Part shown: positions 2,326 to 22,695 of the stretch, one piece after another | How the letters are laid out: the number at the start of each line of letters is the position of its first letter | Position numbering within the stretch: the first letter of the stretch is position 1 | Origin: Nocardioidaceae bacterium | GTDB lineage: Bacteria > Actinomycetota > Actinomycetes > Propionibacteriales > Nocardioidaceae | NCBI GenBank assembly: GCA_018672315.1 | Contig: CP076053.1 | Coordinates: 2,839,827 to 2,903,826 of the forward strand | DNA: 64,000 nucleotides | Direction: 5' to 3' | The notes under the pieces: generated by a model | What the model saw: the letters and a program-made list of their open reading frames with translations, nothing else | Told to the model about the DNA's origin: nothing | The model's database searches: none | Program-made: the position numbers and the translations under genes

Positions 2326-2607
2326 TCAGGAGCCGCCGCCGGCGGAGAAGATGTCGGTGCTGATGCGCTGGAGCTGGTCACGCAGCTGCTCGAGCTCTTC
2401 CTTGGCCTTGTCCAGGGCGGACTTGGTCTCGGGCCAGGTCGAGCCGCGGAACCGCTCGGCCAGGGGGCCGTCCCAGACGTTGGGGTCGCTCAAGGTTCGG
2501 CCCTGGGAGTCGAGCTGGGTGATCTGGTCGGTGAAGCCGCCGTTGATGATCGACTGCATCTGCTGGATGGCCTGCTTGGCCTGCTCGGTGGAGAGCACAC
2601 GGGACAT
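2326..2607 (-). CDS. WXG100 family protein (ESAT-6-like), copy A
   Basis: This 93-aa helical-hairpin protein carries a Trp-Asp-Gly (WXG) turn (NVWDGPLAERF, about residues 43-53), the hallmark of small type VII secretion substrates, which dimerise and accompany larger effectors. The protein is identical, residue for residue, to the one at 11438-11719; I see only two base differences, both silent. It lies directly upstream of an Rhs gene, as its twin does, so it is probably the secretion partner or chaperone of that toxin. It ends in Gly-Gly-Gly-Ser; I see no C-terminal YxxxD/E export motif in it. Confidence 0.9.
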   Translation of the reverse strand: MSRVLSTEQAKQAIQQMQSIINGGFTDQITQLDSQGRTLSDPNVWDGPLAERFRGSTWPETKSALDKAKEELEQLRDQLQRISTDIFSAGGGS

Positions 2608-5736: not shown

Positions 5737-8700
5737 TCACCTCAACGGCTTGGCGCCGGTCTGCTGCAAGATCGACGATGGGTCGACGTCCCGGGGAATC
5801 AATGCCTGGTAACCCTCGCCGCCTGCGACGCTGCCGTAGTACATGTCCTGCCCCTCGGTCAGAACGTACCGTCGTTGCACCTCGATCGGGTTGTCCCACA
5901 TCGCGATGTTGTACGCCTGTTCGGCCTCGATGTGGTTGTCGGCTGACTCGAGTCCGAGGAAGGAGCCAGGCTTCGAGTCCGCCCAACCCTCTGCGCGGTA
6001 GAACTCCGTGCCCGCCGGGAAGTGACGGACCTCGTAACTGCCTCCGCGGAACGAGTCCCGGATGGTGCCCTCGAGGTCCGGTAGTCGTGGTTGCGGCGCC
6101 ACCTCATCCAGCGTCCGGCCTGCACTGCTGGCAGTCGACGCGCCACCACTGAGTTGATGACCGACACCGCCGAGAGCTGAACCCGATCCGGCGCCGACGA
6201 GGCTGTTCGTCGCCGTGGCGCGGAGCAGTCCTCCTGCCGTGTGGGGGCCGGGACCGGTGGCGTAGCCGTACGCACCGCTCACGGCGCCACTCGTACCTCC
6301 GGAGATCGCTCCACCGACCACGGCGCGGCCCAGCGCCGACTGGACGCCCATGCGTGCTGCTGCACCCACGCCTCCCCAGGCGCCGAAGGCACCAGAGATG
6401 GCGACCTGACCCCAGTTCACGTCGCCGGTGGTGGCTTTCTGGATGATGGTGTCGGCGCCGGCGGCCATGAGCATGGCTCCCGCGGGTCCGCCGACGCCCG
6501 TGAACATCAGCGCCCCGCCGGCGATGACCATGGCGCCGCCGGCGACGTACTCCCAGTTGTTCTTCGCCCATTCGCCGGCGGCGTGGAAGGCGCCCTGGCG
6601 GTCGGCGAGGTAGGACTGCAGGTCGGCGTCGGTGAGGGGGGAGAGGCCGGTGGGGTCGGTGGCGTGCAGGGGGTCGTTGCCGGCGTAGGAGTAGGGGTTG
6701 CCTGCCCAGGGTGCGCCGGGGGTGGGGTCGAGGGGATCGACGGTGAGGAATCCGCGGGTGGCGGGGTCGTAGGCGCGGGCGCCCATCCATTCCAGGCCTG
6801 CGAGGTGCAGGACACCGGTGGCGGAGACACCGAGTCCCTCCGGGCCGCCGGTGATGGTCTCGACCGACCAGGGGTCGGCCGGGTCGGTCTCGCGGGCGGT
6901 GCGCCACCCAGGCGTACGCCACTGGTCGCCGACGCCAGTGAGGGGTCCGGCGCCGACGACGGGGTCGGACCCGACGAGCAGCGGGTCGAGGCCGCCGGCG
7001 GCGGTGTCCCACCAGATCTGGGCGGTGGAGACCCGGGCGAGCTCGCCGAGGGCGTCGACGAGAAGCTCTTCCGCGGACGTCTCGGTCTCGGTGGTGGCGA
7101 GCCACCCGGTGGGCGACCACGTGTACCGCACGGTCTGCTGGTCCGTGGACGTCGCGATCCGGCGACCGGCGGCGTCGTACGCGTGCTCGGTGCGCTGCTC
7201 GCCGCCGGGGGCCTGCGCGGTGGAGGTGAGCAGCTGACCGGCCTCGTCGTAGCGGTAGCTGATCTCGCTCACCGTCTCGGCGCGTACGACGCGCTCGCCG
7301 ACAAGCCGCCCGGCGGCGTCGTAGCGCCACCGGCGTGTGGTGCCGTCGTCGCTGACCGTGCCGAGCAGCTGCGAGGCGCTGTCGTGGGCGTAGGTGGTCG
7401 TGCGTCCGTCGCGGGTCACCCGCGTGAGACGGCCCTGGTCGTCACGTGCGACGCGTACCGAGCTCGACGCCTCACCCGCCTGCACCTCGGTCGCGGTCAG
7501 CCACCCGTCGGCGTAGGTGAACGTCTGTCGCAGCGGTCGCCCGTCTCCGTCGGCGCGGACCTCGACCGGACGACCAGCCACGTCGCGGGAGATCGTGGCT
7601 CGGCCGAGCAAGGGGTGTCCGACGCCGACGACGCGACCAGCGGCGTCCCGGTCGTACGTCGTGGTCACCGCGCCGTCCGCGCCGTCCTGAGCAGCTGGGA
7701 CGGTCACGCTGCGGCGGTGGCCGTCGGCGTCATAGGTCCAGCTGATCTCGCCCGTGGCCTCGCCAGGGGCGTCGACGAGCGCGACGCGGGCGCGGCGCAC
7801 GAGGTGCCCGCGCCGGTCGTACGCGAGCTCGTGCCGTCGCTGAGCCTCCTCGGCGAGCCGCCCGCCGAGGGCGTGGTGGTCGAGCACGGTCGTGGTGCGC
7901 GAGCGGGCGTCGTAGGCCCACCGCGAGGCGGTGCGGCCGTCGACGGCGACCTCGGTGAGCCGACCTGCCTCGTCGCGGGCCCACGTCGTCGTGGAGCCGC
8001 CGGCGTCGGTCTGCCATGCCTGTCGGCCGACCGCGTCGTACCCCGCGCGTGTGGTGCGACCCAGCGGGTCGGTCTCGGCGATGCAGCGGTTCAGGCCGTC
8101 GAACTCGCGCGACGTGACGTGCCCGAGGGGATCGATGATGCGGACGGCGCGACCGTTCGCGTCGTACTCCCAGCGGGTGACGCCGCCCAGAGCGTTGGTC
8201 ACAGCAACCAGCTGACCCGCGGCGTCGTAGGCGAACGCGCGGCGTCCGTGCCAGGGGTCCCGTGTCGCGGTGACGCGACCGGCGGCGTCGTAGCGCCACG
8301 TCTGTGTGCCGCGGCCGGGCACGCGACGGCGTACGAGCCGACCGCAGGCGTCGTAGGTCATGTCGGCGATCTCGCCGGCGGGACCGGTGAGGGTGACCAG
8401 GCGTCCGTCGACGTCGTAGCCCCGCGTGGTCGTCGCCCCGGTCGGGTCGGTCGTGGTGGCCAGACGTCCGCAGGCGTCGTAGGAGTACCGGGTGACGGCG
8501 CCGCCGGGGGAGCTCACCTCGACGGGGCGACCCGACGCGTCCCGCACGATGCGGGTCAGTCCGCCCTCGGGGTCGACGACCTCGACGACGCGACCGCACC
8601 GGTCGTGGGTCAGCACCGAGCCGGACCCGTCGGGACCGACCGCACCCAGTGCTCGTCCGAGCGCGTCCGAACGGGAGGTCAGCACGTCGCCGGTCGGGCT

Positions 8701-11364
8701 GGTCACGCTGACCTCGCCCGCGCGGCGGTCGATCGTCATGCGACGGCCGGCGCCCGTCGGGTCCACCGTCGCGGCGGGCCGTCCCATCGCGTCGTGCTCG
8801 GTGCGCCAGGTGCCACCCGTGGGGTCGGTCACCGCGACCAGTCGCGACAGGGCGTCGTGGGCGTAGGACCAGCGGGCACCGTCGGGCAGCTCGACCGAGG
8901 AGACGAGACCGAGGTCGTCCAGCGTGCGGTGCACGGCCCGGCCGAGGGGGTCGACGGTGCGTACGGTCTCGCCGGCCCCGTCGCGCTCCAGGGTCGTGCG
9001 GGCGCCGGTCGGGTCGATCGTCGCGGTCAGACGGCCACCGTCGGAGTGCTCGAAGCGCCACGTGGCGCCGTCGGGGTCGGTACGCGCCGCGAGCGCGCCG
9101 GCACCGTCGTAGGTGAACGTCGTGCGCGCACCCGACGGCCTCACCGCGGCGACGACCCGGCCGAGGGCGTCGCGCTCCAGCCGCGCCGACCCGCCGTGGG
9201 CGTCGGTGGTCGCGACGAGGTCGCCGTGGGCGTCGTAGGTGAACTCGACCAGCACACCGGTCGGGTCGACGACCTGGTCGAGCAGGCCGTCGGTCCAGTG
9301 CAGCTCGGTGACCCCGCCCTCGGGGTCGGTGATGCGGATCGGGTTGCGCGCGGCCGGGTCAGGGTCGTACGCCATGGTCGTGACGGCACCGGACTCCGCG
9401 ACGACGGTGGTCACCCGGTCGTGCTCGTCGTAGCCCCACGACAGGTCGGCCCCCGAGGCCGTGATCTGCCGGACCAGGCGGCCCCGGTCGTCGTGCTTGC
9501 TCGTCGTGGTCGACCCGTCGCGCTCGGTCGCGAGGACCTGGTTGCCGTGCCGGTCGTAGGCGAAGGAGGTGCGCTCGTCGTGCGCGTCGATCGCGGCCAC
9601 CAGACGTCCGCGGTGGTCGGCGACCCAGGTGTTGGAGCGCGTGCCGTCGGCGTCGGAGACCACCGTGATGCGGCCGTCGAGGTAGGCATAGCGCGAGAGA
9701 CGGCCGTGGGGGGAGCGTTGCGTACGCACCCGGCCGCGGTCGTCGTAGGTGTTGTCGAGCTCCGCGACGCCGTCGGGGTCGGTGACCGCGATCAGGAGCC
9801 CCTGGTGCTCACCGTCGAGGTCGTCCCAGGTGTAGGAGCGCGTACGCCCCTCGCTGGTCATCGCGACCAGACGACCGTGCTCGTCGTAGGCGTAGGAGAC
9901 CTCGCGGCCGTCGCTGGAGGTCGCCCCCGTCAGGCGGTCGCGTCCCCCTGGGGCGCCGTCGGCCTCCCAGGCCAGCTCGATCCAGCGGCCGCGCTCGTGC
10001 TCCAGGCGGGTGACCCTGTCCGTGCCGCCGGCGTCGTCCCAGGTGAGGCGTACGCCCGTGCCCGCGCCCCGGGCGACCTCGACGAGACGACCGCGACCGT
10101 CGAAGGTCCACCGGCCACCCCGGTTGTCGGTGACGGCGTGACCGGCTGTGGACGTCCGACCGAGAGCCTCGAGCCAGTAGTTGTCACCGATCGCCCTGCC
10201 CCAGCCGACGTCCCCATCGTCGGTGGTCTCCCGCGCGAACTGGATCTGCCGGCCCTCGGGCAGCGTCATCGCCGCGGTCGTGCCGTCACCGTGCGCGTCG
10301 AGATCGAGACGGGCGTCGGTCCAGGTGGACCAGCCGGGACCGTACGGCTGGACCGCCCGGGAATCCCCGGCGCGGTGGGCCAGCGCGTTGTACGTACGCC
10401 GCAGACCCAACGTCGCGGCGCCCCCGACGAAGCCGAGGTCGACCTCGGTGTGGGTGAAGTTGCCCGTGGCGGTGTTGACCGGGTCGTCGGCGTAGCCCGT
10501 GGTGGGCTGCTCGCCGTACGCCACCGGAGGGTCGATCTGCAGGTCGACGCGGGACGCGCTGACCCCGGCTGCGGCCAGGGCGGAGGCGACCGCCGAGTCC
10601 GCCAGCGTCGAGACGCTGCCACGGCTGCCCGCGGCCTCGAAGGCGCGCGCGACGACCCGCGACCAGCGCGCGTCTGCCCGGTTGAGCTCGAGGAAGGCGG
10701 TGAACCCGCTGAAGAGCCCGTCGGCCTCGACCCGCCCCCACTGGGTGTTGGCCGAGAAGGAGGAGTGCGCCGAGGAGACCGACTGCGACGTCGTCGTCAG
10801 GTCGTCGGTCGCCGCGTCGGCCCCGTCGGCAAAGGTGAAGAGGTCCTGGGGCCGGGCCGAGGACGTGCCGCCGCCCCCGCCCCCTCCACCGCCGCCGGTG
10901 GGTGTCTCGCGGAACCCCGTGGAGGGGTGCTGCACCGAGATCGGCGGGGGAGGACCCGCCGCGACCCGCACCTCGGGGGTGTCGTCGCCGGTGAGCTTGT
11001 CACCGAGCCAGTCCAGACCGCGCTCGACCGCGTTGCGGTCCTGCTGCTCGGCGTACCAGCGGCGGGCCTCCTCGCGACGCTGCTGCTCCTCCTCGGCAAG
11101 TCCCTTCAGGCGTCCGGTGACCGTGGCCAGGTCACGCAGCGCGGTCGCGATCTCCCGCGCGTCGGCCGCCGCGGTGACGGCGTTGTCGTCGAAGAGACGC
11201 GAGAAGAGGCCCCGGAACTCCACCGACGCCGTCCGCGCACGGGAACCCCAGCCGACAGCGGACCACTCCACGGTGGACGCGGCGCTGGTGGCCGCCGCGA
11301 TCAGCCGGTCGGCGCCGCCCCAGTCGAAGGGCACGTCCTCCTCGTTGCCGCGCAGGTCGCTCAC
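5737..11364 (-). CDS. Rhs/YD-repeat polymorphic toxin, complete
   Basis: This 1875-aa protein starts at a GTG (11364) behind GGAGAAG. Its parts in order are: an N-terminal helical WXG/LXG-like module (about 1-130); a linker with a run of glycines (about 170-185); a DUF6531-like entry with YADDPVNTATGNF (about 290); a long YD-repeat shell (about 340-1550); the conserved core end NPYSYAGNDPLHATDPTGL (about 1555-1575); a Gly/Ala-rich hydrophobic pre-toxin region (about 1590-1740); and a C-terminal tip of about 115 residues (about 1761-1875). The tip contains FYRAEGW, GSFLG and GGEGYQALIP, a spacing that recalls ADP-ribosyltransferase or TNT-type NAD-using folds, but I cannot assign it. Family knowledge: the Rhs shell encapsulates the toxin, and the DPTGL region is the self-cleavage site. 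An immunity candidate follows at 4 bp. Confidence 0.9.
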   Translation of the reverse strand: MSDLRGNEEDVPFDWGGADRLIAAATSAASTVEWSAVGWGSRARTASVEFRGLFSRLFDDNAVTAAADAREIATALRDLATVTGRLKGLAEEEQQRREEARRWYAEQQDRNAVERGLDWLGDKLTGDDTPEVRVAAGPPPPISVQHPSTGFRETPTGGGGGGGGGGTSSARPQDLFTFADGADAATDDLTTTSQSVSSAHSSFSANTQWGRVEADGLFSGFTAFLELNRADARWSRVVARAFEAAGSRGSVSTLADSAVASALAAAGVSASRVDLQIDPPVAYGEQPTTGYADDPVNTATGNFTHTEVDLGFVGGAATLGLRRTYNALAHRAGDSRAVQPYGPGWSTWTDARLDLDAHGDGTTAAMTLPEGRQIQFARETTDDGDVGWGRAIGDNYWLEALGRTSTAGHAVTDNRGGRWTFDGRGRLVEVARGAGTGVRLTWDDAGGTDRVTRLEHERGRWIELAWEADGAPGGRDRLTGATSSDGREVSYAYDEHGRLVAMTSEGRTRSYTWDDLDGEHQGLLIAVTDPDGVAELDNTYDDRGRVRTQRSPHGRLSRYAYLDGRITVVSDADGTRSNTWVADHRGRLVAAIDAHDERTSFAYDRHGNQVLATERDGSTTTSKHDDRGRLVRQITASGADLSWGYDEHDRVTTVVAESGAVTTMAYDPDPAARNPIRITDPEGGVTELHWTDGLLDQVVDPTGVLVEFTYDAHGDLVATTDAHGGSARLERDALGRVVAAVRPSGARTTFTYDGAGALAARTDPDGATWRFEHSDGGRLTATIDPTGARTTLERDGAGETVRTVDPLGRAVHRTLDDLGLVSSVELPDGARWSYAHDALSRLVAVTDPTGGTWRTEHDAMGRPAATVDPTGAGRRMTIDRRAGEVSVTSPTGDVLTSRSDALGRALGAVGPDGSGSVLTHDRCGRVVEVVDPEGGLTRIVRDASGRPVEVSSPGGAVTRYSYDACGRLATTTDPTGATTTRGYDVDGRLVTLTGPAGEIADMTYDACGRLVRRRVPGRGTQTWRYDAAGRVTATRDPWHGRRAFAYDAAGQLVAVTNALGGVTRWEYDANGRAVRIIDPLGHVTSREFDGLNRCIAETDPLGRTTRAGYDAVGRQAWQTDAGGSTTTWARDEAGRLTEVAVDGRTASRWAYDARSRTTTVLDHHALGGRLAEEAQRRHELAYDRRGHLVRRARVALVDAPGEATGEISWTYDADGHRRSVTVPAAQDGADGAVTTTYDRDAAGRVVGVGHPLLGRATISRDVAGRPVEVRADGDGRPLRQTFTYADGWLTATEVQAGEASSSVRVARDDQGRLTRVTRDGRTTTYAHDSASQLLGTVSDDGTTRRWRYDAAGRLVGERVVRAETVSEISYRYDEAGQLLTSTAQAPGGEQRTEHAYDAAGRRIATSTDQQTVRYTWSPTGWLATTETETSAEELLVDALGELARVSTAQIWWDTAAGGLDPLLVGSDPVVGAGPLTGVGDQWRTPGWRTARETDPADPWSVETITGGPEGLGVSATGVLHLAGLEWMGARAYDPATRGFLTVDPLDPTPGAPWAGNPYSYAGNDPLHATDPTGLSPLTDADLQSYLADRQGAFHAAGEWAKNNWEYVAGGAMVIAGGALMFTGVGGPAGAMLMAAGADTIIQKATTGDVNWGQVAISGAFGAWGGVGAAARMGVQSALGRAVVGGAISGGTSGAVSGAYGYATGPGPHTAGGLLRATATNSLVGAGSGSALGGVGHQLSGGASTASSAGRTLDEVAPQPRLPDLEGTIRDSFRGGSYEVRHFPAGTEFYRAEGWADSKPGSFLGLESADNHIEAEQAYNIAMWDNPIEVQRRYVLTEGQDMYYGSVAGGEGYQALIPRDVDPSSILQQTGAKPLR

Positions 11365-11437: not shown

Positions 11438-11719
11438 TCAGGAGCCGCCGCCGGCGGAGAAGATGTCGGTGCTGATGCGCTGGAGCTGGTCGCGCAGCTG
11501 CTCGAGCTCTTCCTTGGCCTTGTCCAGGGCGGACTTGGTCTCGGGCCAGGTCGAGCCGCGGAACCGCTCGGCCAGGGGGCCGTCCCAGACGTTGGGGTCG
11601 CTCAAGGTGCGGCCCTGGGAGTCGAGCTGGGTGATCTGGTCGGTGAAGCCGCCGTTGATGATCGACTGCATCTGCTGGATGGCCTGCTTGGCCTGCTCGG
11701 TGGAGAGCACACGGGACAT
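11438..11719 (-). CDS. WXG100 family protein (ESAT-6-like), copy B
   Basis: The 93-aa protein is identical to the one at 2326-2607 and has the same WXG turn (NVWDG). An upstream in-frame start would give 130 aa, but homology and repeat identity favour the ATG at 11719. It is followed after 73 bp by the complete rhs gene and is the first gene of a long minus-strand series reaching 2813. It diverges from the type VII-like operon at 11947, so both could share regulation. Likely role: secreted partner of the Rhs toxin. Confidence 0.9.
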   Translation of the reverse strand: MSRVLSTEQAKQAIQQMQSIINGGFTDQITQLDSQGRTLSDPNVWDGPLAERFRGSTWPETKSALDKAKEELEQLRDQLQRISTDIFSAGGGS

Positions 11720-11732
11720 GTCGGATTCCGCC
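11438..11732 (-). repeat. 295-bp near-identical direct repeat, copy B
   Basis: This is the partner of 2326-2620. It covers the whole WXG100 gene plus 13 bp upstream; similarity stops sharply at both ends, where flanking rhs and promoter DNA differ between the copies. Confidence 0.9.
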
Positions 11733-11800
11733 CTTCTGGACCCCTGTGGGGCCTTCTGACCTGGTACGACCAGACCTGTCCGGTCGTCGGATGCGACAGC

Positions 11801-11830: not shown

Positions 11831-11946
11831 CGCGTGAGGAGAACTTCGGCGATATCGCCCGGGATGGCGGCGGACCGGTCTGACTTGGCCTTATGATCCG
11901 CGTGCGGAGATTCCGTACCTACAGTCGAGACCGGGGGAATCAAGTA

Positions 11947-14754
11947 GTGACCTCGACCAGTCGTGCTTCGGCGCGCTCATCCCGTCGTACGCCACGTCGG
12001 TCCTGGGGCGCCGCCTCCGTGACCGTCGCGACCACGTTGGCGGTGGCCCTGGCCACCGCGCCGACCGCGCTCGCCGCGGAGCAGGACAACAACCCACCGG
12101 TCGACCCGCGCAGCGCGCTGCAGGCGGTCCAGGTCTCGATGGCGCCGGACGGCAGCATCACCGGCCTGAGCGGCCGCATGATGCGCGGCTCGGCCGACGG
12201 CATCGAGACCACCGAGCAGTCCTTCGACCCGCGCCAGGACTCCGCCGACCTGCCGGTGCGGGTGCTGACCTCGTACAGGACCGAGGAGGGCTCGGGCACC
12301 GACCTGAGCGAGCTCGAGGGGTACGACGGCCGCGCCGTGGTGGAGGTGACGGTCTCGAACCTCACCCAGCAGCCGCAGGAGCTGACCTACGACGCCAACG
12401 GGGTCTCCCGCTCCCGCAACGCGCTCGTCGCCGCACCGCTCACCGTCGTGGGTGCCGCGGACCTCGGTGACACGGCGCCGGCCACCGTGCTGACCGACGG
12501 TCCGAACCAGCAGTCGCTGCTCGACCAGGTGCAGGGGTCCGAGGACGCCGGGGTCACCAACGGTGTGCTCGGACGCACCGACGACGGCACGACCGTCGTG
12601 CAGTGGGCCTCGATCCTCGCGCCGCCGCGACTCTCCGCCACGACGACGATGCGTTTGGTCATGCAGGGCGAGGACCTGCCCGCGCCGACCTTCGACCTCA
12701 CGGTCTTCCCCGGGCTCGTGGTCGACCCGTCCCTCGGTGAGCTGCTCGACGCGGCCTTCAACCCCGAGCGCTCCGACGACCTGCAGCTGCAGGCGCGCAC
12801 CGTGCAGGTCATCGGCGACGTCAACGACGTGCTCGGTCGTGCCAGCGACACCATCTCCGACGTGCGCGTCACGCTCGGGTCGGCGGCGGAGACCCTCGGC
12901 CGCCAGACCGTCTCGAACCTCCGCTCGACCACACGCGGCGTCGCGACCTCGATCCGGCAGCTGCAGGGCACGATGCGCGGGCTGCGCCAGGGCGTGCGCT
13001 CCTCGGTGCAGTCCTCCAGCCGCGGCACCTTGGCCCAGCTCGACCAGACGGTCGCCCGGCTGCAGTCCGTGCTCGGCACGCCATCCAGCTCCGGTGGGCC
13101 GGCGACGGTCGTGGGCTTCGGTTGCGAGTCCACGGTGCGGTCCGGGGTGCGGGCCCGCACCGTGGGCGGCAGCCTGCAGCGGGTCGTCGCCCTCCTCGAC
13201 GGGTACGCCCGCGCCACCGACGCCTGCAAGGGCGAGGTGCGCCAGGTGATCGTCGACGCGATCGGGCCCGCGGAGCCGACCGCGCAGAAGTGCCTCGACG
13301 CCGACGGTGACCGCAAGGACAACGTCACCTGCTCGCTGCTCGGCGTGCAGGACCGCTTCGGTGAGATCTCCACGCAGCTGCTCGAGGACGGCGACGCCGC
13401 CATCGCAGCGCTCGACCCCGACGCCGCGGCCACCGCGGTGCGCTCGGCCGGTGAGCTCTCGACGCGCGTCGACCGCATCCTCGAGCGCGGGTCGGCGCTG
13501 TTGAACGCGCGGGCGCTGCAGCGTGGGGACATCGGAGGCATCGGCCTCGGCGGAGTCTTCGGGGCGCTCCAGCAGCTGTCCAACGCGTTGGGAGGGCTCT
13601 CCCAGCAGGTGAACGACGGGACTTTGAATGCCACGAAGCTGAGTGGCAAGGTCGCGGATCTACTCGCGATCGTCTGCGACGGCGGCGCAGCCGCGCAGCA
13701 GATGCGCGACATCCTCGACGGCGGCACGTGCCCCGTCGTCCCCGGCGGCGGTCAGCCCGGCGACCCGAACGACCCGAACGACCCGAACGCCCCCGTGGTC
13801 GACCCGAACCCGGGTGCGGGCAACACGCCGGTGGCCGACTCCCTCGCCGACCGCGCCCAGCGCAACGCGGCCGCCTGGGCGACGCTGTCGTCCAGTGTCG
13901 GCGGCGCGCAAGGCGCACTGGACGTCGTCGCGAACGCCGTCAGCGGTGTGAGCGGCGCACTCGGCGGGCTGACCGAGGGTGTAAAGGGCGACCGCCTGGA
14001 GCTCCGCGAGCTCACCGACGCGCTGCAGGCAGCCATGACCGAGCTCGACGCGGCCCGCACGGTGGCGATCGAGAGCGTCGACGAGGTCGCCGAGAACCAG
14101 GAGGCGGTCACCGCAGCAGCGCGGGAGGCGTTCGAGGACGCGGCCGACGCGGCCGACGACTCGCTGGCCGACATCGTCGACCCGGCGACACGACAGATCA
14201 GCAGGCGCACCGCGGAGAACGCCGAGACGCTCGGCCGCGCGTTCGACAAGTCCATCGCCGGTCTGCGCGGCGCCGGTCGGCTGATCCGGTCCGACGGCTA
14301 CGCCGCCATCCGGCGCCAGCAGCGGGTGCTGCTCGGCGCGCGGCAGTCGGCACGTCAGCAGATCACCCGTCAGGCCGGCCAGGCCCTCGCGGGCATCGAC
14401 CGGGTCGTCAGCGGCTCCGTACGCGACCTCGACAGCGCCGCCGCGATCCTGCGCCGCGACCTGACCAACGTGCTGCTCGACCTGGGCGACCCCGACGTCG
14501 CGGGCTCCGGCCTGCTCGGCATCATGTCGGCCGGCGCCGCCACGGCACGCTCGGCCGACCTGCAGCTGACGCAGGCCACCGACCGCACGACGTCGTACGC
14601 CAACCAGCGCAGCTCCGACATCGACGGCATCCGTCTGCGCCAGGAGCAGGCCGATGCGTCGCTGCGGCGCCTGCAGCAGCTCGGCGCGTTCGGCGACCCC
14701 GAGGCCGACGGTGTGCAGGTCGTCTACGACGTGCACATCGGCTCGGGGCAGTGA
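11947..14754 (+). CDS. Exported coiled-coil protein of type VII-like operon
   Basis: This is a 935-aa protein. I chose the GTG at 11947, which has GGGGGA 7 nt upstream; an ATG at 11893 lacks a ribosome site and lies in a -10-like hexamer. A basic N-terminus and hydrophobic stretch (about 21-43, ending ALAA) form a signal peptide; no later membrane segment is seen. The central part has six cysteines (about residues 395-600), an even number fitting extracellular disulfides, then a linker of PND repeats (about 603-628) and long Ala/Arg/Asp-rich helical segments (about 650-910). Family not recognised. As first gene before the lipoprotein and the EssC-like ATPase it may play the part of the large extracellular coiled-coil component (EsaA/YueB in Firmicutes); this is inference from position and shape. 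Confidence 0.75.
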   Translation: MTSTSRASARSSRRTPRRSWGAASVTVATTLAVALATAPTALAAEQDNNPPVDPRSALQAVQVSMAPDGSITGLSGRMMRGSADGIETTEQSFDPRQDSADLPVRVLTSYRTEEGSGTDLSELEGYDGRAVVEVTVSNLTQQPQELTYDANGVSRSRNALVAAPLTVVGAADLGDTAPATVLTDGPNQQSLLDQVQGSEDAGVTNGVLGRTDDGTTVVQWASILAPPRLSATTTMRLVMQGEDLPAPTFDLTVFPGLVVDPSLGELLDAAFNPERSDDLQLQARTVQVIGDVNDVLGRASDTISDVRVTLGSAAETLGRQTVSNLRSTTRGVATSIRQLQGTMRGLRQGVRSSVQSSSRGTLAQLDQTVARLQSVLGTPSSSGGPATVVGFGCESTVRSGVRARTVGGSLQRVVALLDGYARATDACKGEVRQVIVDAIGPAEPTAQKCLDADGDRKDNVTCSLLGVQDRFGEISTQLLEDGDAAIAALDPDAAATAVRSAGELSTRVDRILERGSALLNARALQRGDIGGIGLGGVFGALQQLSNALGGLSQQVNDGTLNATKLSGKVADLLAIVCDGGAAAQQMRDILDGGTCPVVPGGGQPGDPNDPNDPNAPVVDPNPGAGNTPVADSLADRAQRNAAAWATLSSSVGGAQGALDVVANAVSGVSGALGGLTEGVKGDRLELRELTDALQAAMTELDAARTVAIESVDEVAENQEAVTAAAREAFEDAADAADDSLADIVDPATRQISRRTAENAETLGRAFDKSIAGLRGAGRLIRSDGYAAIRRQQRVLLGARQSARQQITRQAGQALAGIDRVVSGSVRDLDSAAAILRRDLTNVLLDLGDPDVAGSGLLGIMSAGAATARSADLQLTQATDRTTSYANQRSSDIDGIRLRQEQADASLRRLQQLGAFGDPEADGVQVVYDVHIGSGQ

Positions 14755-16064
14755 CCCGGCGGCCCGGTCTCGCCGGTGCACTGGCGACGGCCACGGCACT
14801 GCTCGTGGTCACCGGCTGCACCGGTGACTCCGCCGAGGAGCCCGCCGCGACCGCGGCGACCGCGGCCAGCGTCGCGCCGGTCGACCTCGGCGGAGGTGAG
14901 GACGCGGAGAGCTCAGTCTCCGAGGTGACCCTCGGCGTCGTGGTCACCCTCGGGTCCGACCCGGGCCAGGGCGAGGCCTGGAAGTTCGCCGCCGAGGGTG
15001 CGACCGTCGCAGCGTACCGCTACTCCCGCGGCGAGGTCGACGTGACCCTCGAGGTCCGCGACGACAGCGGCAGCACCGAGGGCGCCGTCGCGGCCGTCCG
15101 CGAGCTCGTCGACGCAGGTGTCACGGGCATCGTCGTGGCCTCCAGCGGCGACCACCTCGAGCAGGCTCTCGCCGTCGCGCAGGACGAGCAGGTGCCGGTG
15201 GTGCTCCCGTACGAACCCGTGCCCGAGAACCTCCTCGACGGCGGTGGACTCTTCTCCCTGGCACCGTCCGAGGAGGTCGCCGGCGCCACGCTCGCGACCG
15301 CTCTCGAGGACCGGGAGGCCGAGCTGCCGTACGTGCTGGACATCGGCGGGGGCGTGCCCGAGGGGCTCGAGGACTACGCCGAGCGCACCGTCACGCTCGG
15401 CGAGCAGGAGGACCGCCTCTTCGGTCTGGTGCGCCGCAGCATCCGGCAGGACGGCGTCGACGCCATCCTGCTCAGCGGGCCCGCCGAGGCGCAGGCCCAG
15501 CTGCTGGTCTCGCTGCAGGGCACGCGCATCGACCTGCCGGTCTTCCTCACCCCCGACGCCCTGGCCCCGGCCTTCAGCACCACGCTGACCGACGCCGACG
15601 CGCCCCTGAGCGAGGACCTGACCACGGTCGGGGCCGACAACGGCGACATCGGTGCCATGGCCGCGGGCGCGCGGGGTGCGGCCCTGTCCGCCTTCTTCGC
15701 GGCCCTCCGCGCGGCGGTCGACGATCCCGAGGTGAGCACCTTCTTCGACGACCAGCCCTTCCGGGCCGTCGCCGAGGACGTCGACACCCGCAGCCACGAC
15801 GCCGTGGTGGTGCTCGTCGAGGCGGCCCGCCGCGCCGACGACACCGGCGCCGAGGCGGTGCTCGCGACGCTCGACGGCCTGCGCCTCGACGACACCGACG
15901 GTCTCGCGGGCCCGGCGGTGGACCTGGGGTCCCCGCAGATCGTCCCGCCCTCCGCGGTCGTGCCGCTGCAGTCCACCGTCGACGACCCGGGGCTGCGTCC
16001 CATCGATCCCGAGTCACCGCCGCGTCTGCACTGGTTCACTGCCATCAGCGACGACCAGGACTGA
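14751..16064 (+). CDS. Periplasmic-binding-fold lipoprotein in type VII-like operon
   Basis: This is a 437-aa protein starting at a GTG that overlaps the previous stop by 4 bp (GTGA). It has a lipoprotein signal with lipobox LVVTGC (Cys about 23) and then a type I periplasmic binding fold like branched-chain amino-acid receptors (LGVVVTLGSD, GVTGIVVASSGDH, VPVVLPYEPVP, DAILLSGPAEA). No permease or ABC ATPase gene is nearby; instead the next gene is the EssC-like ATPase. It is therefore more likely an extracytoplasmic sensor or structural part of the secretion locus than a transporter receptor. The role is inferred. Confidence 0.8.
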   Translation: MTRRPGLAGALATATALLVVTGCTGDSAEEPAATAATAASVAPVDLGGGEDAESSVSEVTLGVVVTLGSDPGQGEAWKFAAEGATVAAYRYSRGEVDVTLEVRDDSGSTEGAVAAVRELVDAGVTGIVVASSGDHLEQALAVAQDEQVPVVLPYEPVPENLLDGGGLFSLAPSEEVAGATLATALEDREAELPYVLDIGGGVPEGLEDYAERTVTLGEQEDRLFGLVRRSIRQDGVDAILLSGPAEAQAQLLVSLQGTRIDLPVFLTPDALAPAFSTTLTDADAPLSEDLTTVGADNGDIGAMAAGARGAALSAFFAALRAAVDDPEVSTFFDDQPFRAVAEDVDTRSHDAVVVLVEAARRADDTGAEAVLATLDGLRLDDTDGLAGPAVDLGSPQIVPPSAVVPLQSTVDDPGLRPIDPESPPRLHWFTAISDDQD

Positions 16065-16082: not shown

Positions 16083-19000
16083 GTGCGGATATCCACCCTC
16101 TTCGACGGCGTCCGCCACGAGGTGGACCTCGTGCAGCACGCGGACGCCGCGACGCTCGCCGACCTGCTGGAGTCGGTGACGGGGTCGCGTCCGGTCGACG
16201 GGTCGACGCTGTGGGTCGACGACCGCGAGGTGCACGGTGAGGACCGGATCGCCGAGCTGGGACTTCTCGAGGGCTGTCGCCTCGGCCAGGAGCCCCTGCC
16301 CCGACCTGTCACCGCCGAGGGGTGGACGCTGACCGTCGTCGGTGGGCTCGCGACCGGGCAGGTCGTCGAGCTCCCGACGGACCGCACGGTCACGGTCGGG
16401 CGCGCCCCGCAGGCCGACGTCACGCTCGACTCCGCATCGGCGTCCTGGCAGCACGTCACCCTGCGCCGGGAGTCGGGGGGCGTACGCGTCCGGGACGCCG
16501 GTTCCACCAACGGCACCCGGGTCGACGGGGAGCTGCTCGACCCCGACCAGGACGGTGTGCTCGTCGCCGTCGACGCCGTGGTCGTCGCCGGGGGTGCGGC
16601 GTTGCGCGTACGCCGCAGCGCGGGCGACCTCGCGGCGCCCCGTCCTGCTGCGGGGCGGCGTACGACCGCGGCCGCGACGGTGCCGTTCAACCGACCGCCA
16701 CGCGACGGGGCGCCGCCCCCGCCCGCGGGCATCGAGCCGCCGACGCGCTCGGAGCCGACCAAGCCCAGTCGCTTCAGCATCGCCACGGTCATCGGTCCGC
16801 TGCTGCTGGCCGCGGCGATGGTCGCGGTCATCGGCGACCCGCGGTTCGCCCTGCTCGCCGCACTCAGCCCGATTCTCGGCGTGGGCACCTGGTGGGAGGG
16901 CAAGCGTCGCTACAAGCGCGACACCGAGGAGGAGCGCGTCCGCTTCGAGAAGGCACTCGACGACTTCGAGGACGAGCTCGCCGCCGCGGCCTCCCGCGAA
17001 CGCGACCGGCGGCGGGTGGAGGCCCCCGACCCGCCGGAGTGCCTGCGTCGCGCAGCCCTGCCGGCCACGACCCTGTGGCAACGTCGGCCCGAACGTGACG
17101 ACTTCCTGGTGCTGCACGCCGGTGTCGGCGACGTGCCGTGGGAGCCGCCGATCGACCGGTCGGGCCGCGCGTCGGTCAAGCTCGAGGACGAGGCCGCCGA
17201 GATCGTGGCCCGCAGCCGCATCGGCGGGGCACCCGTGCAGGTCGATCTGCTCGACGCCGGCGTCGTCGGCATCGTCGGTGATCGCGAGGGCGCGCTGGCG
17301 CTCGCACGCAGCCTGCTGTGCCAGGCGACCGTCCACTGCGGTCCCGCCGACCTCGCCGTCGGCGTGTTCTGCGACCCCGGTCGCAGCGAGGACTGGGACT
17401 TCGCCGGGTGGCTGCCGCACACCCGGCAGTGGGGCGGCCAGGACGGCGCGCAGTGGCTCTCGGCCGAGAAGACCGGCAGCGAGCGGATGCTGCGGTCCCT
17501 CCTCGACACCGTCGACGGGCTGCCCAGTGCCCAGATGCTGCTCGTGCTGGACTCCGAGGTGCTGCTCGAGGGACGTGACGCGCCGGCTCGTACGCTGCTC
17601 GGCCACGGACGTGGCGCGCGCGGGTCCTCCCAGCGCAACCCCGGCACGCCCGTCGCGGGCATCGTCGTCGCCGCCACCGAGGAGCAGCTGCCCGCCGCCT
17701 GCACCGTCGTGGTGACGGTGGCGCAGGACGCCGCCGCCACCGTGGAGGTGCCCGGTGACCTCGTGGAGGTCGCGGACGTGGTGCTCGCCGGCCTCGACGT
17801 GGAGTCCGCGCGCCGCTGCGCCATGGACCTGGCCCACTTCGAGGACCCGGAGCTGAAGGTGCCCGGCGCCGGCCTGCCCGGCATGGTGCGGCTGAACTCC
17901 GTGCTCGGCCTGGACGAACCGTCCGTCGACGCCGTGCTGCAACGGTGGGACGCCGCCACCGGCGTCAGCACCCCGGTCGGGGTGGGGGAGTCCGGCGAGT
18001 TCGAGATCGACCTGGTGCGCGACGGACCGCACGGCCTGGTCGGCGGCACCACGGGATCGGGCAAGTCCGAGTTCCTGCGCTCCCTGGTCGCGGGCCTGGC
18101 GCTGCGTACGCCCCCCACCGAGCTCACCTTCATCCTCATCGACTTCAAGGGCGGGGCGGCGTTCGCGGCGTGCGAGCGGCTGCCGCACACCATCGGCACG
18201 GTCTCCAACCTCGACGCGGCGCTGGCCGACCGTGCGATCCGGGCGCTCGAGGCGGAGATGCGCTACCGCCAGGAGCTGTTCGCCGCCGCGGGCGAGGGCG
18301 TGGACAACCTCGACGAGTACCGCCGCACCAACCCCGCCGAGCCGCTCCCGCGCCTGCTGCTGGTCATCGACGAGTTCGCCCAGCTCGCCAAGGACTACCC
18401 CGACGCCCTCGCCTCGCTGGTCAGCGTCGGTGCGGTCGGCCGCACCCTGGGTGTGCACATGATCCTCGCGACGCAACGGCCGGCCGGTGTCGTCAACGAC
18501 GACATCCTCGCCAACACCAACCTGCGGGTGGCGCTGCGCGTGCAGTCCAAGGAGGACTCGGTCAACGTCGTCGACGTGCCCGACGCCTCGGCGATCAGCC
18601 GCACGCAGCAGGGGCGGGCGTACATCAAGATGGGTCAGGACGACATCGCCCCGGTGCAGACCGCGCTCGTCACCGGTCAGTTCAGCGAGACCGAGACGAG
18701 CGCCGTCGAGGTCGCCGACGTGGTGTTCGGGGGCGTACGCCGCACCGCGTCGGGCCCCGCGAAGCCCGACAAGGACACCCCGACCGACCTCGACGAGCTC
18801 ATCGAGGTGATCCGGACGGCGGCCCAGGCGCGCGGGCACGTGGGCCCGCGGCCGGTGTGGCCGCCGGCGCTCGGGGAGCAGGTGCCGTTGGCCGGCCTGC
18901 CCGGCGGGCCGGTCGCAAACGTCGCTGCCGACGGCACCTTCGACGGGGCCGAGGCCGAGCGCGACGCCGACCTGGTCAACCAGGTGCCGCCGCGCGCGGT

Positions 19001-20441
19001 GGGACGCATGAGCGGTCGTACGCTCGAGATCGCCCTCGCCGACGACCCCGACCGGCAGCGGCAGATCCCGGTCGGCTGGGACACCGACCGCGGCAACCTG
19101 CTGCTGCTCGGCATCCCGGGGTCCGGCACCACCACCACGCTCGCCACCATCGCGCTGACCGCGGCGGCGGGCCTCGCCCCCGACGAGCTCGACCTGCTCG
19201 TGCTCGACATGGGCGCCCGCGACCTCGCGCCGCTGGAGGCGCTGCCGCACTGCACCGCGTACGTCGCCTCGGGCGCCGGGGCGCGTGAGCAGCAGGTGCG
19301 GTTCCTCAAGCACGTCCGCGCCGAGCTCGACCGGCGGCGCGAGGCCGGGGGCCCGCACCGCCCGATGCTGGTGCTGATCGACGGGCTCGCCTCGTTGAAG
19401 GACGAGTACGACGACTTCGAGGGCATCGAGCTCATGCAGGGTCTCTACCGGGCGTGGGCCGAGGGCGGTCCGTCGCAGATGTGGTTCGCGGCCGCCACCA
19501 CCCGGGCGAAGTCGGTGCCCTCGGCGATCGACGAGGTCACCACCCAGAAGTGGCTCTTCCGCCTAGCCGACGCCTACGACTACGGCGCTGCCGGCATCCC
19601 GAAGGACAAGGCGCCGCCCGCCGTCGCGGGGCGGTGCGTCCTCGCGGGGTCGATGCTGCACGCGCACGTCGCCTCCCCGGACCGTCCGCTGGCCGAGGCC
19701 GTGGCGGCCGTCGCGGGTGCCCACCCCGACGCCACCCCCAAGCCGCCGGCGGTGGGGACGCTGCCGGAGCACGTCGACGTCGCTGCGCTCGAGGCGGCCC
19801 AGCTCGGCGAGGAGCTCTGGCGGATCCCGGCAGGTGTCGCTGAGAGCGACCTGTCGACGGCGTGGTTGGAGAGCTACGCCGGTGAGCACGTCTTCATCGG
19901 CGGGCCGCCCCGTGCGGGCAAGTCGACGCTGCTGCTCGCGATGCGGCAGGCGATCGAGGAGGGTGCGAAGCAGGCCGGACGTGAGGTGACCGTCTGGGGC
20001 GTGTGCGGCCGTCGGTCACCCCTGCGCGAGGCGGGCCTGGCTCGCGTGGCGGTCGGGGCCGATGAGCTGCCCGAGCTCGTCGCGGCCGCCCGCATGGAGG
20101 ACGGGATGCTCGTGCTGCTGGTCGACGACTGCGAGCAGCTGGTCGACGACTCCGGGGTGATCCAGGGGCTCATCGACGCCCGCGGCACCTCGTTGCGCAT
20201 CGTCGCCGCGGGTCGCTCGGGGGACTTGAAGTCGATGTACAACCACTGGTCCAAGGCCGTCCGCAAGTGGCGGTGCGGCGTGCTGCTGCAGCCCGACGTG
20301 GACTACGACGGCGACCTGCTCGGCAGCCCCCTGCCCCGCAAGTCACCGGTGCGGATCACCACCGGCCGGGGGTGGATGTACTCCTCGGGCCGGCAGGTGC
20401 TCGTGCAGTCCGCCCACGCCTCCGACGCCGACCTCGGCTGA
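16083..20441 (+). CDS. essC: FHA-containing EssC/EccC-type FtsK/SpoIIIE ATPase
   Basis: This 1452-aa protein is the motor of a type VII secretion system. Residues 1-70 look ubiquitin-like or like a degenerate first FHA domain; an FHA domain follows (about 92-178: GR at 106-107, His124, STNGT 141-145). Then come a Pro-rich linker, a membrane hairpin (about 231-270) and three P-loop modules. D1 has an intact Walker A (GGTTGSGKSE, about 654) and Walker B (LLLVIDEFA). D2 has a degenerate Walker A (GIPGSGTTTT, about 1010, the usual Lys is Thr). D3 has GGPPRAGKST (about 1273). The N-terminal FHA layout is that of Firmicutes EssC rather than mycobacterial EccC. GTG start with AGGAG upstream. It should recognise and export the WXG100/Rhs proteins encoded divergently. 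The symbol is by domain layout only. Confidence 0.9.
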   Translation: MRISTLFDGVRHEVDLVQHADAATLADLLESVTGSRPVDGSTLWVDDREVHGEDRIAELGLLEGCRLGQEPLPRPVTAEGWTLTVVGGLATGQVVELPTDRTVTVGRAPQADVTLDSASASWQHVTLRRESGGVRVRDAGSTNGTRVDGELLDPDQDGVLVAVDAVVVAGGAALRVRRSAGDLAAPRPAAGRRTTAAATVPFNRPPRDGAPPPPAGIEPPTRSEPTKPSRFSIATVIGPLLLAAAMVAVIGDPRFALLAALSPILGVGTWWEGKRRYKRDTEEERVRFEKALDDFEDELAAAASRERDRRRVEAPDPPECLRRAALPATTLWQRRPERDDFLVLHAGVGDVPWEPPIDRSGRASVKLEDEAAEIVARSRIGGAPVQVDLLDAGVVGIVGDREGALALARSLLCQATVHCGPADLAVGVFCDPGRSEDWDFAGWLPHTRQWGGQDGAQWLSAEKTGSERMLRSLLDTVDGLPSAQMLLVLDSEVLLEGRDAPARTLLGHGRGARGSSQRNPGTPVAGIVVAATEEQLPAACTVVVTVAQDAAATVEVPGDLVEVADVVLAGLDVESARRCAMDLAHFEDPELKVPGAGLPGMVRLNSVLGLDEPSVDAVLQRWDAATGVSTPVGVGESGEFEIDLVRDGPHGLVGGTTGSGKSEFLRSLVAGLALRTPPTELTFILIDFKGGAAFAACERLPHTIGTVSNLDAALADRAIRALEAEMRYRQELFAAAGEGVDNLDEYRRTNPAEPLPRLLLVIDEFAQLAKDYPDALASLVSVGAVGRTLGVHMILATQRPAGVVNDDILANTNLRVALRVQSKEDSVNVVDVPDASAISRTQQGRAYIKMGQDDIAPVQTALVTGQFSETETSAVEVADVVFGGVRRTASGPAKPDKDTPTDLDELIEVIRTAAQARGHVGPRPVWPPALGEQVPLAGLPGGPVANVAADGTFDGAEAERDADLVNQVPPRAVGRMSGRTLEIALADDPDRQRQIPVGWDTDRGNLLLLGIPGSGTTTTLATIALTAAAGLAPDELDLLVLDMGARDLAPLEALPHCTAYVASGAGAREQQVRFLKHVRAELDRRREAGGPHRPMLVLIDGLASLKDEYDDFEGIELMQGLYRAWAEGGPSQMWFAAATTRAKSVPSAIDEVTTQKWLFRLADAYDYGAAGIPKDKAPPAVAGRCVLAGSMLHAHVASPDRPLAEAVAAVAGAHPDATPKPPAVGTLPEHVDVAALEAAQLGEELWRIPAGVAESDLSTAWLESYAGEHVFIGGPPRAGKSTLLLAMRQAIEEGAKQAGREVTVWGVCGRRSPLREAGLARVAVGADELPELVAAARMEDGMLVLLVDDCEQLVDDSGVIQGLIDARGTSLRIVAAGRSGDLKSMYNHWSKAVRKWRCGVLLQPDVDYDGDLLGSPLPRKSPVRITTGRGWMYSSGRQVLVQSAHASDADLG

Positions 20442-20631: not shown

Positions 20632-22695
20632 TCAGCTGCCCCGCCCGGTGACGGTGACCGGGTTGCTCTCCAGGAACCGGAAGTTGCCGACGTCGACGCC
20701 GACCGTGCACGTGGGCGAGTCGGACTGCTGGATCGCATTGACCACCAGGCCGTCACGCTCGGGGACCAGGGCCGAGCCGCAGTTGCTGCTGAACCGCACC
20801 CGGGGCTCCTCCCCGGCGATGGCGGTCAACGTCGACGCGGCGTTCTCGTCAAGGCTGAACCCCCTGCTCGGAGGGCTCACGAGCAAGGGCTCGTCACCGG
20901 GCTCGTCGGGCCACACCGGGAAGAGGGTGATGTCCAGCGGGGAGCCCGTGAGCACCCTGTCGGGCGCGACGACGACCTCGACACCCTGCACGCGCTGCAC
21001 GGCGAAGGCGTCGGAGTCGAAGGTCGGGTCCGTGACGGCCTCGGTGGTGCGCTGGGCAGCGGTGTTGAGCCAGGTCTGCAGGGCGGTGGGGTCCTCGGAC
21101 TCGGCGAGGCCGTCCAGCCGGATGCTCGCGGTGACCTCGACGGGTGCGTCCGGGCTGATCTCCTCGACCTGCACCTCCCACCCGCAGTCGACCTGCATGT
21201 CGTTGATGCTCGCGGGGTTCGGGACGGCGTCGGCACCCGTCCACGCCCCCACGTCGGCGCAGGCGTCCTCACCACCCCCAGCCGCGGGCAGCACCTCCAG
21301 GAGCGGACCCTGCAACGGGGCGGTCTCGGCGGTGTAGGTGAGGGTCAGGTCGACCACTCCGCTCTCGGGGTCGTACGTGGCGCGACGCGTCACCTGCAGC
21401 CCGGTGGGGAGCCCGGTGTCGACCTGGCTGGCCGTCCCGGCGCCCGCGACGATCGTCTGCGGCTGCCCGGGCTGCTGCCCCTCGGGCGCGTCGTCACCAC
21501 CGAGCACCAGCACCCCGACCGTCGCCACCGCCACGAGCGCGACACCACCGGCGACGAGGGCGACCAGCCGCTTGTCGACGCGCGAGCGCTGCGGCTCCTC
21601 GGGCTGCCGGCGCCGCCGCGCCGGCTCCTCCTCGGCGGGGCGCTGCAACGGCCGCACCATCGTGGCGCTCTCGGCGTCACCGAGGTCGATCCGTTCGACG
21701 GGTGCGACCTCGGGCAGACCCTCCTCGGCCGCGTCGTCGTCGTCGCTGTCGCTGTCGCGGGCCAGGGGGCGAACGACCGTCTGCGGCCCGGCCGCGGTCT
21801 CGTAGTCCGAGGGAGCGCCCTGGACGGCGAGCGCCGGCGCGTCGAGGAGCCTCGGACGCAGCGACTCCAGGTCGCCGGCGGCGTCGGCGGCGGTCGGTCG
21901 GGCGGCCGGGTCCTTCGCGAGCATCCGCTCGATGACGGCCCACAGGTCGTCATCGACGGGGATGCGCGGAGGCCGGCGTTGCACGTGACGCTGGGCGATG
22001 GCCCAGGCCGAGCCCGACCCGGCGAACGGTGTGCGGCCGGCCAGCAGCTCGTACAGCATGATGCCGACGGCGTACACGTCACCACGTGGGCCGCACTGCT
22101 CGGTCTCGATGAGCTCGGGGCACAGGTATTCCGGCGTGCCCAGCACGCCGGTGTGCGAGGTGGTGCGTTCGGCCACGATGCGGGCGATGCCGAAGTCGGA
22201 GAGCCGTACGCCACCCGCGGCCGCCGCCGCGTGGCGGCGTCCCTCGCGCCAGGGCTCGCTGAGCAGCACGTTGTCGGGCTTCACGTCGCGGTGCAGCACG
22301 TCGGCGTCGTGCGCCGCCGCGAGTCCCTGCAGCACGGCCACCGCCGCCGCGACAGCGTCCGCGGGGGTCAACGGACCGGACTCGGTCAGCAGGTCGCGCA
22401 GGGAGCCGCCGTCCACGTGGTCCATGACGATCGCGATGCGGTCGCCCTCGACGACCAGGTCACGGACGGCAACGAGGGCCGGATGGCGCAGCCCGACCAG
22501 GATGGATCGCTCCTGCACGAAGCGTGCGACCAGCGCCGGGTCCTGCGTGTGCTCGCTGCGCAGCAGCTTGGCGGCCACCCGCTCGTCGGTGCGGCGGTCC
22601 AGCGCCACCCACACCTCGCCCATCGCTCCCGAGCCGGCCCTGCGCTCGAGCCGGTAGTTGGCGCCGAGCGCGGCGTCGAGGTCGTCCGCGTCCAC
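20632..22695 (-). CDS. Transmembrane Ser/Thr protein kinase (PknB type)
   Basis: This is a 687-aa protein. The kinase domain (about 14-280) has the Gly loop GSGAMGEVW, Lys43, the catalytic loop HRDVKPDN, DFG, and a TPEYLCPE activation end. An acidic, Arg-rich linker leads to one membrane helix (about 377-400). The extracellular part (about 400-687) carries several cysteines and no PASTA repeats that I can see. GTG start. It converges on the FHA-containing ATPase gene; FHA domains bind phosphothreonine, so the kinase may control assembly or activity of the secretion ATPase. That link is inferred from adjacency and known FHA chemistry. Confidence 0.9.
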   Translation of the reverse strand: MDADDLDAALGANYRLERRAGSGAMGEVWVALDRRTDERVAAKLLRSEHTQDPALVARFVQERSILVGLRHPALVAVRDLVVEGDRIAIVMDHVDGGSLRDLLTESGPLTPADAVAAAVAVLQGLAAAHDADVLHRDVKPDNVLLSEPWREGRRHAAAAAGGVRLSDFGIARIVAERTTSHTGVLGTPEYLCPELIETEQCGPRGDVYAVGIMLYELLAGRTPFAGSGSAWAIAQRHVQRRPPRIPVDDDLWAVIERMLAKDPAARPTAADAAGDLESLRPRLLDAPALAVQGAPSDYETAAGPQTVVRPLARDSDSDDDDAAEEGLPEVAPVERIDLGDAESATMVRPLQRPAEEEPARRRRQPEEPQRSRVDKRLVALVAGGVALVAVATVGVLVLGGDDAPEGQQPGQPQTIVAGAGTASQVDTGLPTGLQVTRRATYDPESGVVDLTLTYTAETAPLQGPLLEVLPAAGGGEDACADVGAWTGADAVPNPASINDMQVDCGWEVQVEEISPDAPVEVTASIRLDGLAESEDPTALQTWLNTAAQRTTEAVTDPTFDSDAFAVQRVQGVEVVVAPDRVLTGSPLDITLFPVWPDEPGDEPLLVSPPSRGFSLDENAASTLTAIAGEEPRVRFSSNCGSALVPERDGLVVNAIQQSDSPTCTVGVDVGNFRFLESNPVTVTGRGS

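What the first reader, a model, noticed from the sequence alone, without database searches (positions are those of the whole stretch)
14751..16064. Branched-chain amino-acid-receptor-like lipoprotein inside a secretion operon
The gene overlaps its upstream neighbour by 4 bp and is followed by the secretion ATPase at 18 bp, with no transporter genes nearby. A solute-binding fold here suggests an extracellular ligand or cell-wall sensor that gates secretion, which I do not know from described type VII systems.
Basis: partly seen in the sequence, partly recalled or inferred. Interest (0 to 1): 0.6.

Follow-up and report, generated by a model that had tools for sequence, protein, structure and literature searches.

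The report
Tethered binding-protein subunit of type VII secretion
Many soil, plant and skin actinobacteria carry, inside a protein-secretion machine thought to export large toxin-like proteins, a membrane-tethered protein with the fold of a nutrient-binding protein but without the parts that bind amino acids, so it is more likely a dedicated sensor or scaffold of that machine than a nutrient receptor.

Summary
The gene at 14751-16064 encodes a 437-aa Peripla_BP_6 lipoprotein. It overlaps its upstream neighbour by 4 bp and lies 18 bp before an EssC-type ATPase. The nearest LivH/M-type permease is about 155 kb away.

The protein is a core component of an actinobacterial type VII secretion (T7SS) locus. 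In a search made with EssC only, 72 of 77 usable loci have the same pair, coiled-coil protein then binding protein, directly upstream of EssC. No locus carries a LivH/M permease. Pairwise distances of the four proteins correlate at r about 0.97.

Lipidation is not general: about 65 of 72 named relatives carry a transmembrane anchor instead. And it is not a branched-chain amino-acid receptor: canonical LivJ contacts are replaced (Ser79 by Gly in 46/46, Ala100 by Tyr in 45/46), yet these cleft columns are among the most conserved (P about 0.001).

Kinase and EssC FHA domain keep their key residues. My preferred model is a tethered sensor acting through kinase and FHA on EssC, like GlnH-GlnX-PknG-GarA. 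A purely structural role is the main rival.

The parts
14751..16064 (+). Solute-binding-protein-fold (Peripla_BP_6) membrane-tethered subunit, 437 aa; the finding
14751..14819 (+). Signal peptide and lipobox VTGC; lipidated Cys23 at 14817-14819
   Evidence: sequence; the family alternates lipobox and transmembrane anchor
15147..15149 (+). Gly133, invariant (46/46), at the column of the LivJ ligand-binding Ser79
15210..15212 (+). Tyr154, 45/46, at the column of LivJ Ala100 in the cleft
11893..14754 (+). COIL: exported 953-aa coiled-coil protein, its gene overlapping the finding by 4 bp and conserved immediately upstream of it
16083..20441 (+). EssC-type T7SS ATPase, 1452 aa
16083..16298 (+). 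N-terminal ~72 residues of EssC, apparent ubiquitin-like beta-grasp domain (inference)
16389..16553 (+). FHA domain of EssC with the phosphothreonine-binding signature residues invariant in the family
20632..22695 (-). Transmembrane Ser/Thr protein kinase, 687 aa, with extracellular C-terminal domain
11438..11719 (-). WXG100 protein (93 aa)
5737..11364 (-). RHS-repeat protein (1875 aa), candidate secreted substrate with an N-terminal WXG-like helical region
2326..2607 (-). Second WXG100 gene, 280/282 bases identical to the first, same protein

Best explanation
The gene encodes a dedicated, membrane-tethered subunit of an actinobacterial T7SS of the EssC/FHA/Ser-Thr-kinase kind. It has a solute-binding-protein fold whose cleft has been rebuilt so that it no longer has the amino-acid contacts of LivJ. 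The proposed mechanism has four steps. (1) The subunit sits on the outer face of the membrane and pairs with the exported coiled-coil protein made from the overlapping upstream gene. (2) It changes state when it meets an extracellular cue (a small molecule, a wall fragment, or contact through the coiled-coil protein). (3) This is passed to the extracellular part of the transmembrane kinase. (4) The kinase phosphorylates a threonine that the FHA domain of EssC binds, which switches assembly or export of WXG100/RHS substrates. Shown: fold, locus membership, co-inheritance, tethering, loss of canonical contacts with strong cleft conservation, intact kinase and FHA residues. Inferred: every physical contact, the ligand, and the gating.
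For: Linkage from both sides. EssC-anchored search: 72 of 77 loci have COIL and the binding protein directly upstream. Binding-protein-anchored search of 246 genomes: the strong hits lie by COIL, EssC and/or the kinase. The 4-bp overlap with COIL is kept in 59 of about 94. Pairwise distances of the binding protein correlate with EssC, COIL and kinase at r = 0.97 over 55 loci. The tether is kept although its chemistry changes (about 65 transmembrane, 7 lipoprotein), as expected for a stationary receptor or subunit and not a diffusing transport protein. 4 of 8 LivJ ligand-contact columns are at least 95% conserved within the family, against 21 of 308 columns overall (P about 0.001), but with different residues. 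Kinase HRD in 59/61, DFG in 61/61, a transmembrane stretch in 61/61. FHA residues G106, R107, S121, H124, N143, G144 of EssC invariant. In some Nocardioidaceae-type loci the order is COIL, binding protein, kinase, EssC. Precedent for the logic: GlnH lipoprotein, kinase PknG and FHA protein GarA (PMC6069109, PMC9769921).
Against: No structure could be predicted, so an open pocket is not shown. An invariant Tyr at the Ala100 position could fill the cleft. No ligand, expression or interaction data exist. In many loci the kinase gene is on the opposite strand, and in 13 of 77 it was not found within the fetched stretch. Five EssC relatives, Bifidobacterium apri among them, lack the pair at the locus, and a profile search of their genomes found no counterpart, so related EssC proteins can exist without it. 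Rows of the alignment are related by descent, so the P value is only a guide.
Confidence: 0.5

Rival explanations
1. The solute-binding fold has been recruited as a structural part of the secretion complex: a tethered extracellular scaffold that holds the coiled-coil protein over the EssC channel. It binds no small molecule, the cleft being filled by the invariant Tyr154.
For: Canonical contacts lost in all members, overlapping gene with COIL, interchangeable tether, same rate of divergence as COIL (median identity 43% and 42%).
Against: Cleft columns are among the most conserved in the protein; a pure scaffold would be expected to conserve an outer face instead. This is not excluded, because the conserved cleft could bind a peptide of COIL or of the kinase.
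Confidence: 0.35
2. It is an ordinary orphan substrate-binding protein that feeds an ABC amino-acid permease encoded elsewhere and lies in the secretion operon by accident.
For: Fold family Peripla_BP_6 is typical of Liv-type transporters; permeases exist elsewhere in the genome.
Against: The two other Peripla_BP_6 genes of the genome sit by their own permeases. No LivH/M permease in about 100 loci. Linkage to EssC in 72 of 77 loci. LivJ contacts absent. Most members are transmembrane-anchored.
Confidence: 0.04
3. It is a surface immunity or receptor protein for the RHS effector family encoded at the same locus.
For: RHS proteins are encoded in several loci close by.
Against: It is inherited with EssC and COIL at r = 0.97 and sits on the machine side of the locus; immunity proteins usually vary with the toxin tip. 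Several loci have no RHS match nearby.
Confidence: 0.05

Closest known systems
T7SSd (TsdA, TsdC, TsdD, TsdH, TsdI) of Actinomycetota, Garrett et al. 2024 (PMC11217815)
   Same: Actinomycetota; WXG100 protein; EssC with an FHA domain whose phosphothreonine-binding residues are kept; transmembrane Ser/Thr kinase; RHS proteins as candidate substrates.
   Different: T7SSd is described with a ~1650-aa TsdI (Ig-like domains, C-terminal transmembrane helix), with TsdH and without a ubiquitin-like protein. Here there are an exported ~950-aa coiled-coil protein, a binding-protein-fold subunit, and an apparent beta-grasp domain at the EssC N-terminus. No solute-binding protein or lipoprotein is mentioned for any of T7SSa-j in the main text of that paper.
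T7SSb (Ess/Yuk) of Bacillota
   Same: EssC-like ATPase with N-terminal FHA domain and WXG100 protein.
   Different: EssC falls well below the T7_EssCb_Firm cut-off (436 vs 778 bits). The FHA residues here are kept and a catalytically intact kinase is present, where T7SSb has the pseudokinase EssB (statement of PMC11217815).
LivJ/LivK-type branched-chain amino-acid-binding proteins (Peripla_BP_6)
   Same: Same fold over both lobes (Pfam; hhalign E 5.7e-7 over 297 columns; PDB relatives of the HAAT/BCAA type).
   Different: Ligand contacts replaced, no permease, permanent membrane tether, locus in T7SS.
GlnH-GlnX-PknG-GarA/OdhI amino-acid sensing (PMC6069109, PMC9769921)
   Same: Logic: binding protein without a permease, Ser/Thr kinase, FHA-domain target, in Actinomycetota.
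   Different: GlnH is of another binding-protein type (homologous to E. coli GlnH) and binds Asp/Glu/Asn; PknG is soluble and needs GlnX; the target is a metabolic regulator, not a secretion ATPase. Analogy only; homology of the assembly is neither tested nor claimed.

Membership tests
Peripla_BP_6 fold family (PF13458) | Profile match above curated cut-off over both lobes | tested here: met
   40.8 vs 31.7 bits, residues 59-388; hhalign with LivJ over 297 columns; 19 of 46 members match at E<=0.01, others match sister PBP families
Branched-chain amino-acid receptor (LivJ/LivK) | Conserved ligand contacts (Tyr18, Ser79, Ala100, Thr102, Tyr150, Tyr202, Glu226, Phe276; list from own knowledge of LIVBP structures) | tested here: not met
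   Only an acidic residue at 226 is kept, in 28/46; Ser79 is Gly in 46/46, Ala100 is Tyr in 45/46, Phe276 is Ala in 44/46. The permease-linked L205 of the same genome keeps most of them
Branched-chain amino-acid receptor (LivJ/LivK) | Encoded with LivH/LivM permeases | tested here: not met
   No LivH/M-type permease in any T7SS locus; the B. apri liv operon rings as control; about 155 kb away in the own genome
Type VII secretion locus | EccC/EssC ATPase and a WXG100 protein at the locus | tested here: met
   EssC 16083-20441; WXG100 11438-11719, below the Pfam cut-off but matching the profile, and conserved in the loci
T7SSd | Ser/Thr kinase TsdD and EssC with phosphothreonine-competent FHA | tested here: met
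T7SSd | Large TsdI with C-terminal transmembrane helix | tested here: inconclusive
   No such gene was recognised; COIL is 953 aa and its C-terminus shows no hydrophobic stretch. No O. uli TsdI sequence was available to compare
T7SSd | TsdH, small single-pass protein | not tested
   -
T7SSd | No ubiquitin-like protein at the locus | tested here: inconclusive
   EssC begins with about 72 residues of beta-grasp-like pattern; Pfam gives only weak SLBB hits (E 0.006-0.009)
T7SSb | EssC of the Firmicutes type above NCBIfam cut-off | tested here: not met
   435.7 vs 778.4 bits
Sensor that gates secretion through kinase and FHA (works like GlnH-PknG-GarA) | Ligand binding and ligand-dependent phosphorylation | not testable with these tools

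The most novel reading that the evidence does not exclude
A T7SS subtype of Actinomycetota carries its own extracellular chemoreceptor: a tethered binding protein with a rebuilt cleft that reads a cue in the envelope or from a neighbour, and that licenses export of effectors through a Ser/Thr kinase and the FHA domain of EssC. To my knowledge it would be the first dedicated ligand sensor inside a type VII machine.
Probability: 0.35. Interest if true: 0.85.

Novelty: new variant of a known kind. Interest (0 to 1): 0.6.

Why it matters
What tells a type VII system to fire is, to my knowledge, an open question. This family offers a concrete, testable input module: binding-protein ectodomain, kinase and FHA domain. 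It occurs in culturable, mostly harmless genera (Arthrobacter, Paenarthrobacter, Microbacterium) and in a skin commensal (Cutibacterium avidum). It also shows that an Actinomycetota T7SS arrangement whose content differs from the listed T7SSa-j components is common, and its binding-protein gene is likely to be annotated as an ABC transporter component.

Tried and rejected
Branched-chain amino-acid receptor: rejected by the contact table. Orphan ABC component: rejected by linkage and permease search. Lipoprotein as the defining form: rejected. Universal T7SS component: rejected, since EssC relatives found outside the order-level set (L175-L194) have no such neighbour and five closer EssC loci lack it. 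The phylum-wide search with the family profile found only the own gene and an unrelated lipoprotein; its first look scores few candidates, so absence there is weak evidence. COIL hits in PDB and Pfam are generic coiled-coil matches and were not used. Literature searches for a binding protein in T7SS found nothing relevant; most subscription papers are not in that library.
Full report
Observation. The gene 14751-16064 is real: 437 codons, GTG start overlapping the stop of 11893-14754 by 4 bp, and 18 bp before the ATPase gene 16083-20441. It matches Peripla_BP_6 above the curated cut-off over residues 59-388 and starts with a signal peptide and lipobox. The ATPase is EssC-like, with an FHA domain and FtsK/SpoIIIE domains. 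Around it lie a WXG100 gene (11438-11719, -), an RHS-repeat protein (5737-11364, -) and a transmembrane Ser/Thr kinase (20632-22695, -).

Is it part of the machine? Two searches from opposite sides say yes. With the protein itself, 31 of 246 genomes of the order gave a match, and the strong ones were fetched with their surroundings; the coiled-coil gene (COIL), EssC and/or the kinase lie beside it. With an EssC alignment that contains no information on the finding, 80 named loci came back from Arthrobacter, Curtobacterium, Microbacterium, Rothia, Propionibacterium, Cutibacterium avidum, Actinotignum and others. Of the 77 with enough upstream sequence, 72 have COIL and the binding protein directly before EssC. 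The five exceptions are L060, L111, L113 (Bifidobacterium apri), L131 and L136. A profile search of the genomes behind them found nothing except, in B. apri, a true LivJ inside a liv operon. More distant EssC relatives in the phylum lack the pair, so the component belongs to one clade of T7SS.

Coupling. The 4-bp overlap between COIL and the binding protein is kept in 59 of about 94 loci measured. Pairwise distances of binding protein, COIL, EssC and kinase over 55 loci correlate at 0.97-0.98, so they descend together. Binding protein and COIL diverge at the same pace (median identity 43% and 42%), faster than EssC (63%).

Not a transporter part. The own genome has three Peripla_BP_6 genes. 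Two are beside BPD_transp_2 permeases; the third, this one, is about 155 kb from the nearest. A search of all fetched T7SS loci with LivH/M-type permeases found none, while the B. apri liv operon included as control was found at E 1e-65.

Tether. Of 72 relatives with named organisms, about 65 have a single N-terminal transmembrane segment without a lipobox and 7 are lipoproteins (L104 is counted here as a lipoprotein and L129 as transmembrane after reading the sequence). The window's lipoprotein form is typical of the loci from its own family. What is kept is the tether, not its chemistry.

Cleft. The fold relation to LivJ covers both lobes (hhalign E 5.7e-7, 297 columns), and the profile's best PDB matches are amino-acid/amide-binding proteins. 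In a joint alignment with E. coli LivJ/LivK and permease-linked relatives from the same genome, the LivJ contacts (list from my own knowledge of LIVBP structures) are replaced: Tyr18 by Gly (46/46), Ser79 by Gly (46/46), Ala100 by Tyr (45/46), Phe276 by Ala (44/46). Thr102 is variable, Tyr150 and Tyr202 are not aromatic, and Glu226 is acidic in 28/46. Four of these eight columns are among the 21 of 308 core columns that are at least 95% conserved in the family (hypergeometric P about 0.001; the sequences are related, so only a guide). The cleft is therefore not decaying; it is conserved in another form. Whether it binds a ligand, a peptide of a partner, or is filled by Tyr154 cannot be told without a structure.

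Mechanism. The kinase keeps HRD in 59/61 and DFG in 61/61 and has a transmembrane stretch in 61/61. The FHA residues of EssC (G106, R107, S121, H124, N143, G144) are invariant in a 12-sequence alignment. In several loci of the window's family the kinase gene lies between the binding protein and EssC on the same strand. The binding protein and COIL are outside, the kinase spans the membrane, and FHA and ATPase are inside. The simplest reading is an input module: outside state, kinase, phosphothreonine, FHA, EssC. The logic has a studied counterpart in Actinomycetota, GlnH-GlnX-PknG-GarA/OdhI, where a binding protein without permease is proposed to control a kinase whose target is an FHA protein (PMC6069109, PMC9769921). 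This is analogy, not homology. The main rival is a structural role; I put about 0.5 on the sensor and 0.35 on the scaffold.

Comparison with known systems. T7SSd (PMC11217815) is the nearest: Actinomycetota, WXG100, FHA-EssC, kinase, RHS substrates. Its listed components are TsdA, C, D, H and I; the main text names no solute-binding protein or lipoprotein for any subtype, and none of the genera Arthrobacter, Curtobacterium or Cutibacterium. The authors found no ubiquitin-like protein; here the first ~72 residues of EssC look like a beta-grasp domain, which is an inference from pattern only. I could not compare with O. uli sequences, so whether this is a branch of T7SSd with another outer part or a separate subtype is open. 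I class it as a new variant of a known kind.

Limits. No structure, ligand, expression or interaction data. The 80 loci are the best of 438 hits, so the 72/77 ratio describes the closer part of the EssC clade. Protein starts were chosen by script.

Noticed in passing
2326-2607 (-) and 11438-11719 (-): Two WXG100 genes encode the same protein, 280 of 282 bases identical, but their flanks are unrelated beyond 13 bases upstream: a recent copy or gene conversion.
   Followed up: partly
16083-16298: EssC of this clade starts with a ~72-residue pattern that looks like a ubiquitin-like beta-grasp domain; T7SSd was reported to lack a ubiquitin-like protein, so it may be fused here.
   Followed up: partly
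L032, L033, L035, L036, L038-L041, L049: In some loci of the window's family, COIL, binding protein and kinase are close relatives but EssC is only about 30% identical or barely matched, in the order COIL, binding protein, kinase, EssC: the outer module may pair with different EssC types.
   Followed up: partly
L113 (Bifidobacterium apri), 4105-14494: EssC, WXG100 and an RHS protein without COIL, binding protein or kinase at the locus, and no T7SS-type binding protein found elsewhere in the genome.
   Followed up: partly
11893-14754: COIL has conserved cysteines (C411, C445, C467, C480) and an N-terminal non-coiled domain; it matches no specific Pfam family.
   Followed up: no
5737-11364 (-): RHS protein carries an N-terminal WXG-like helical leader, a candidate secretion signal for this T7SS.
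   Followed up: no
L060, L131, L136: Lone EssC genes of this clade without the outer genes nearby (Propioniciclava, a Micrococcaceae MAG, Solirubrobacter).
   Followed up: partly
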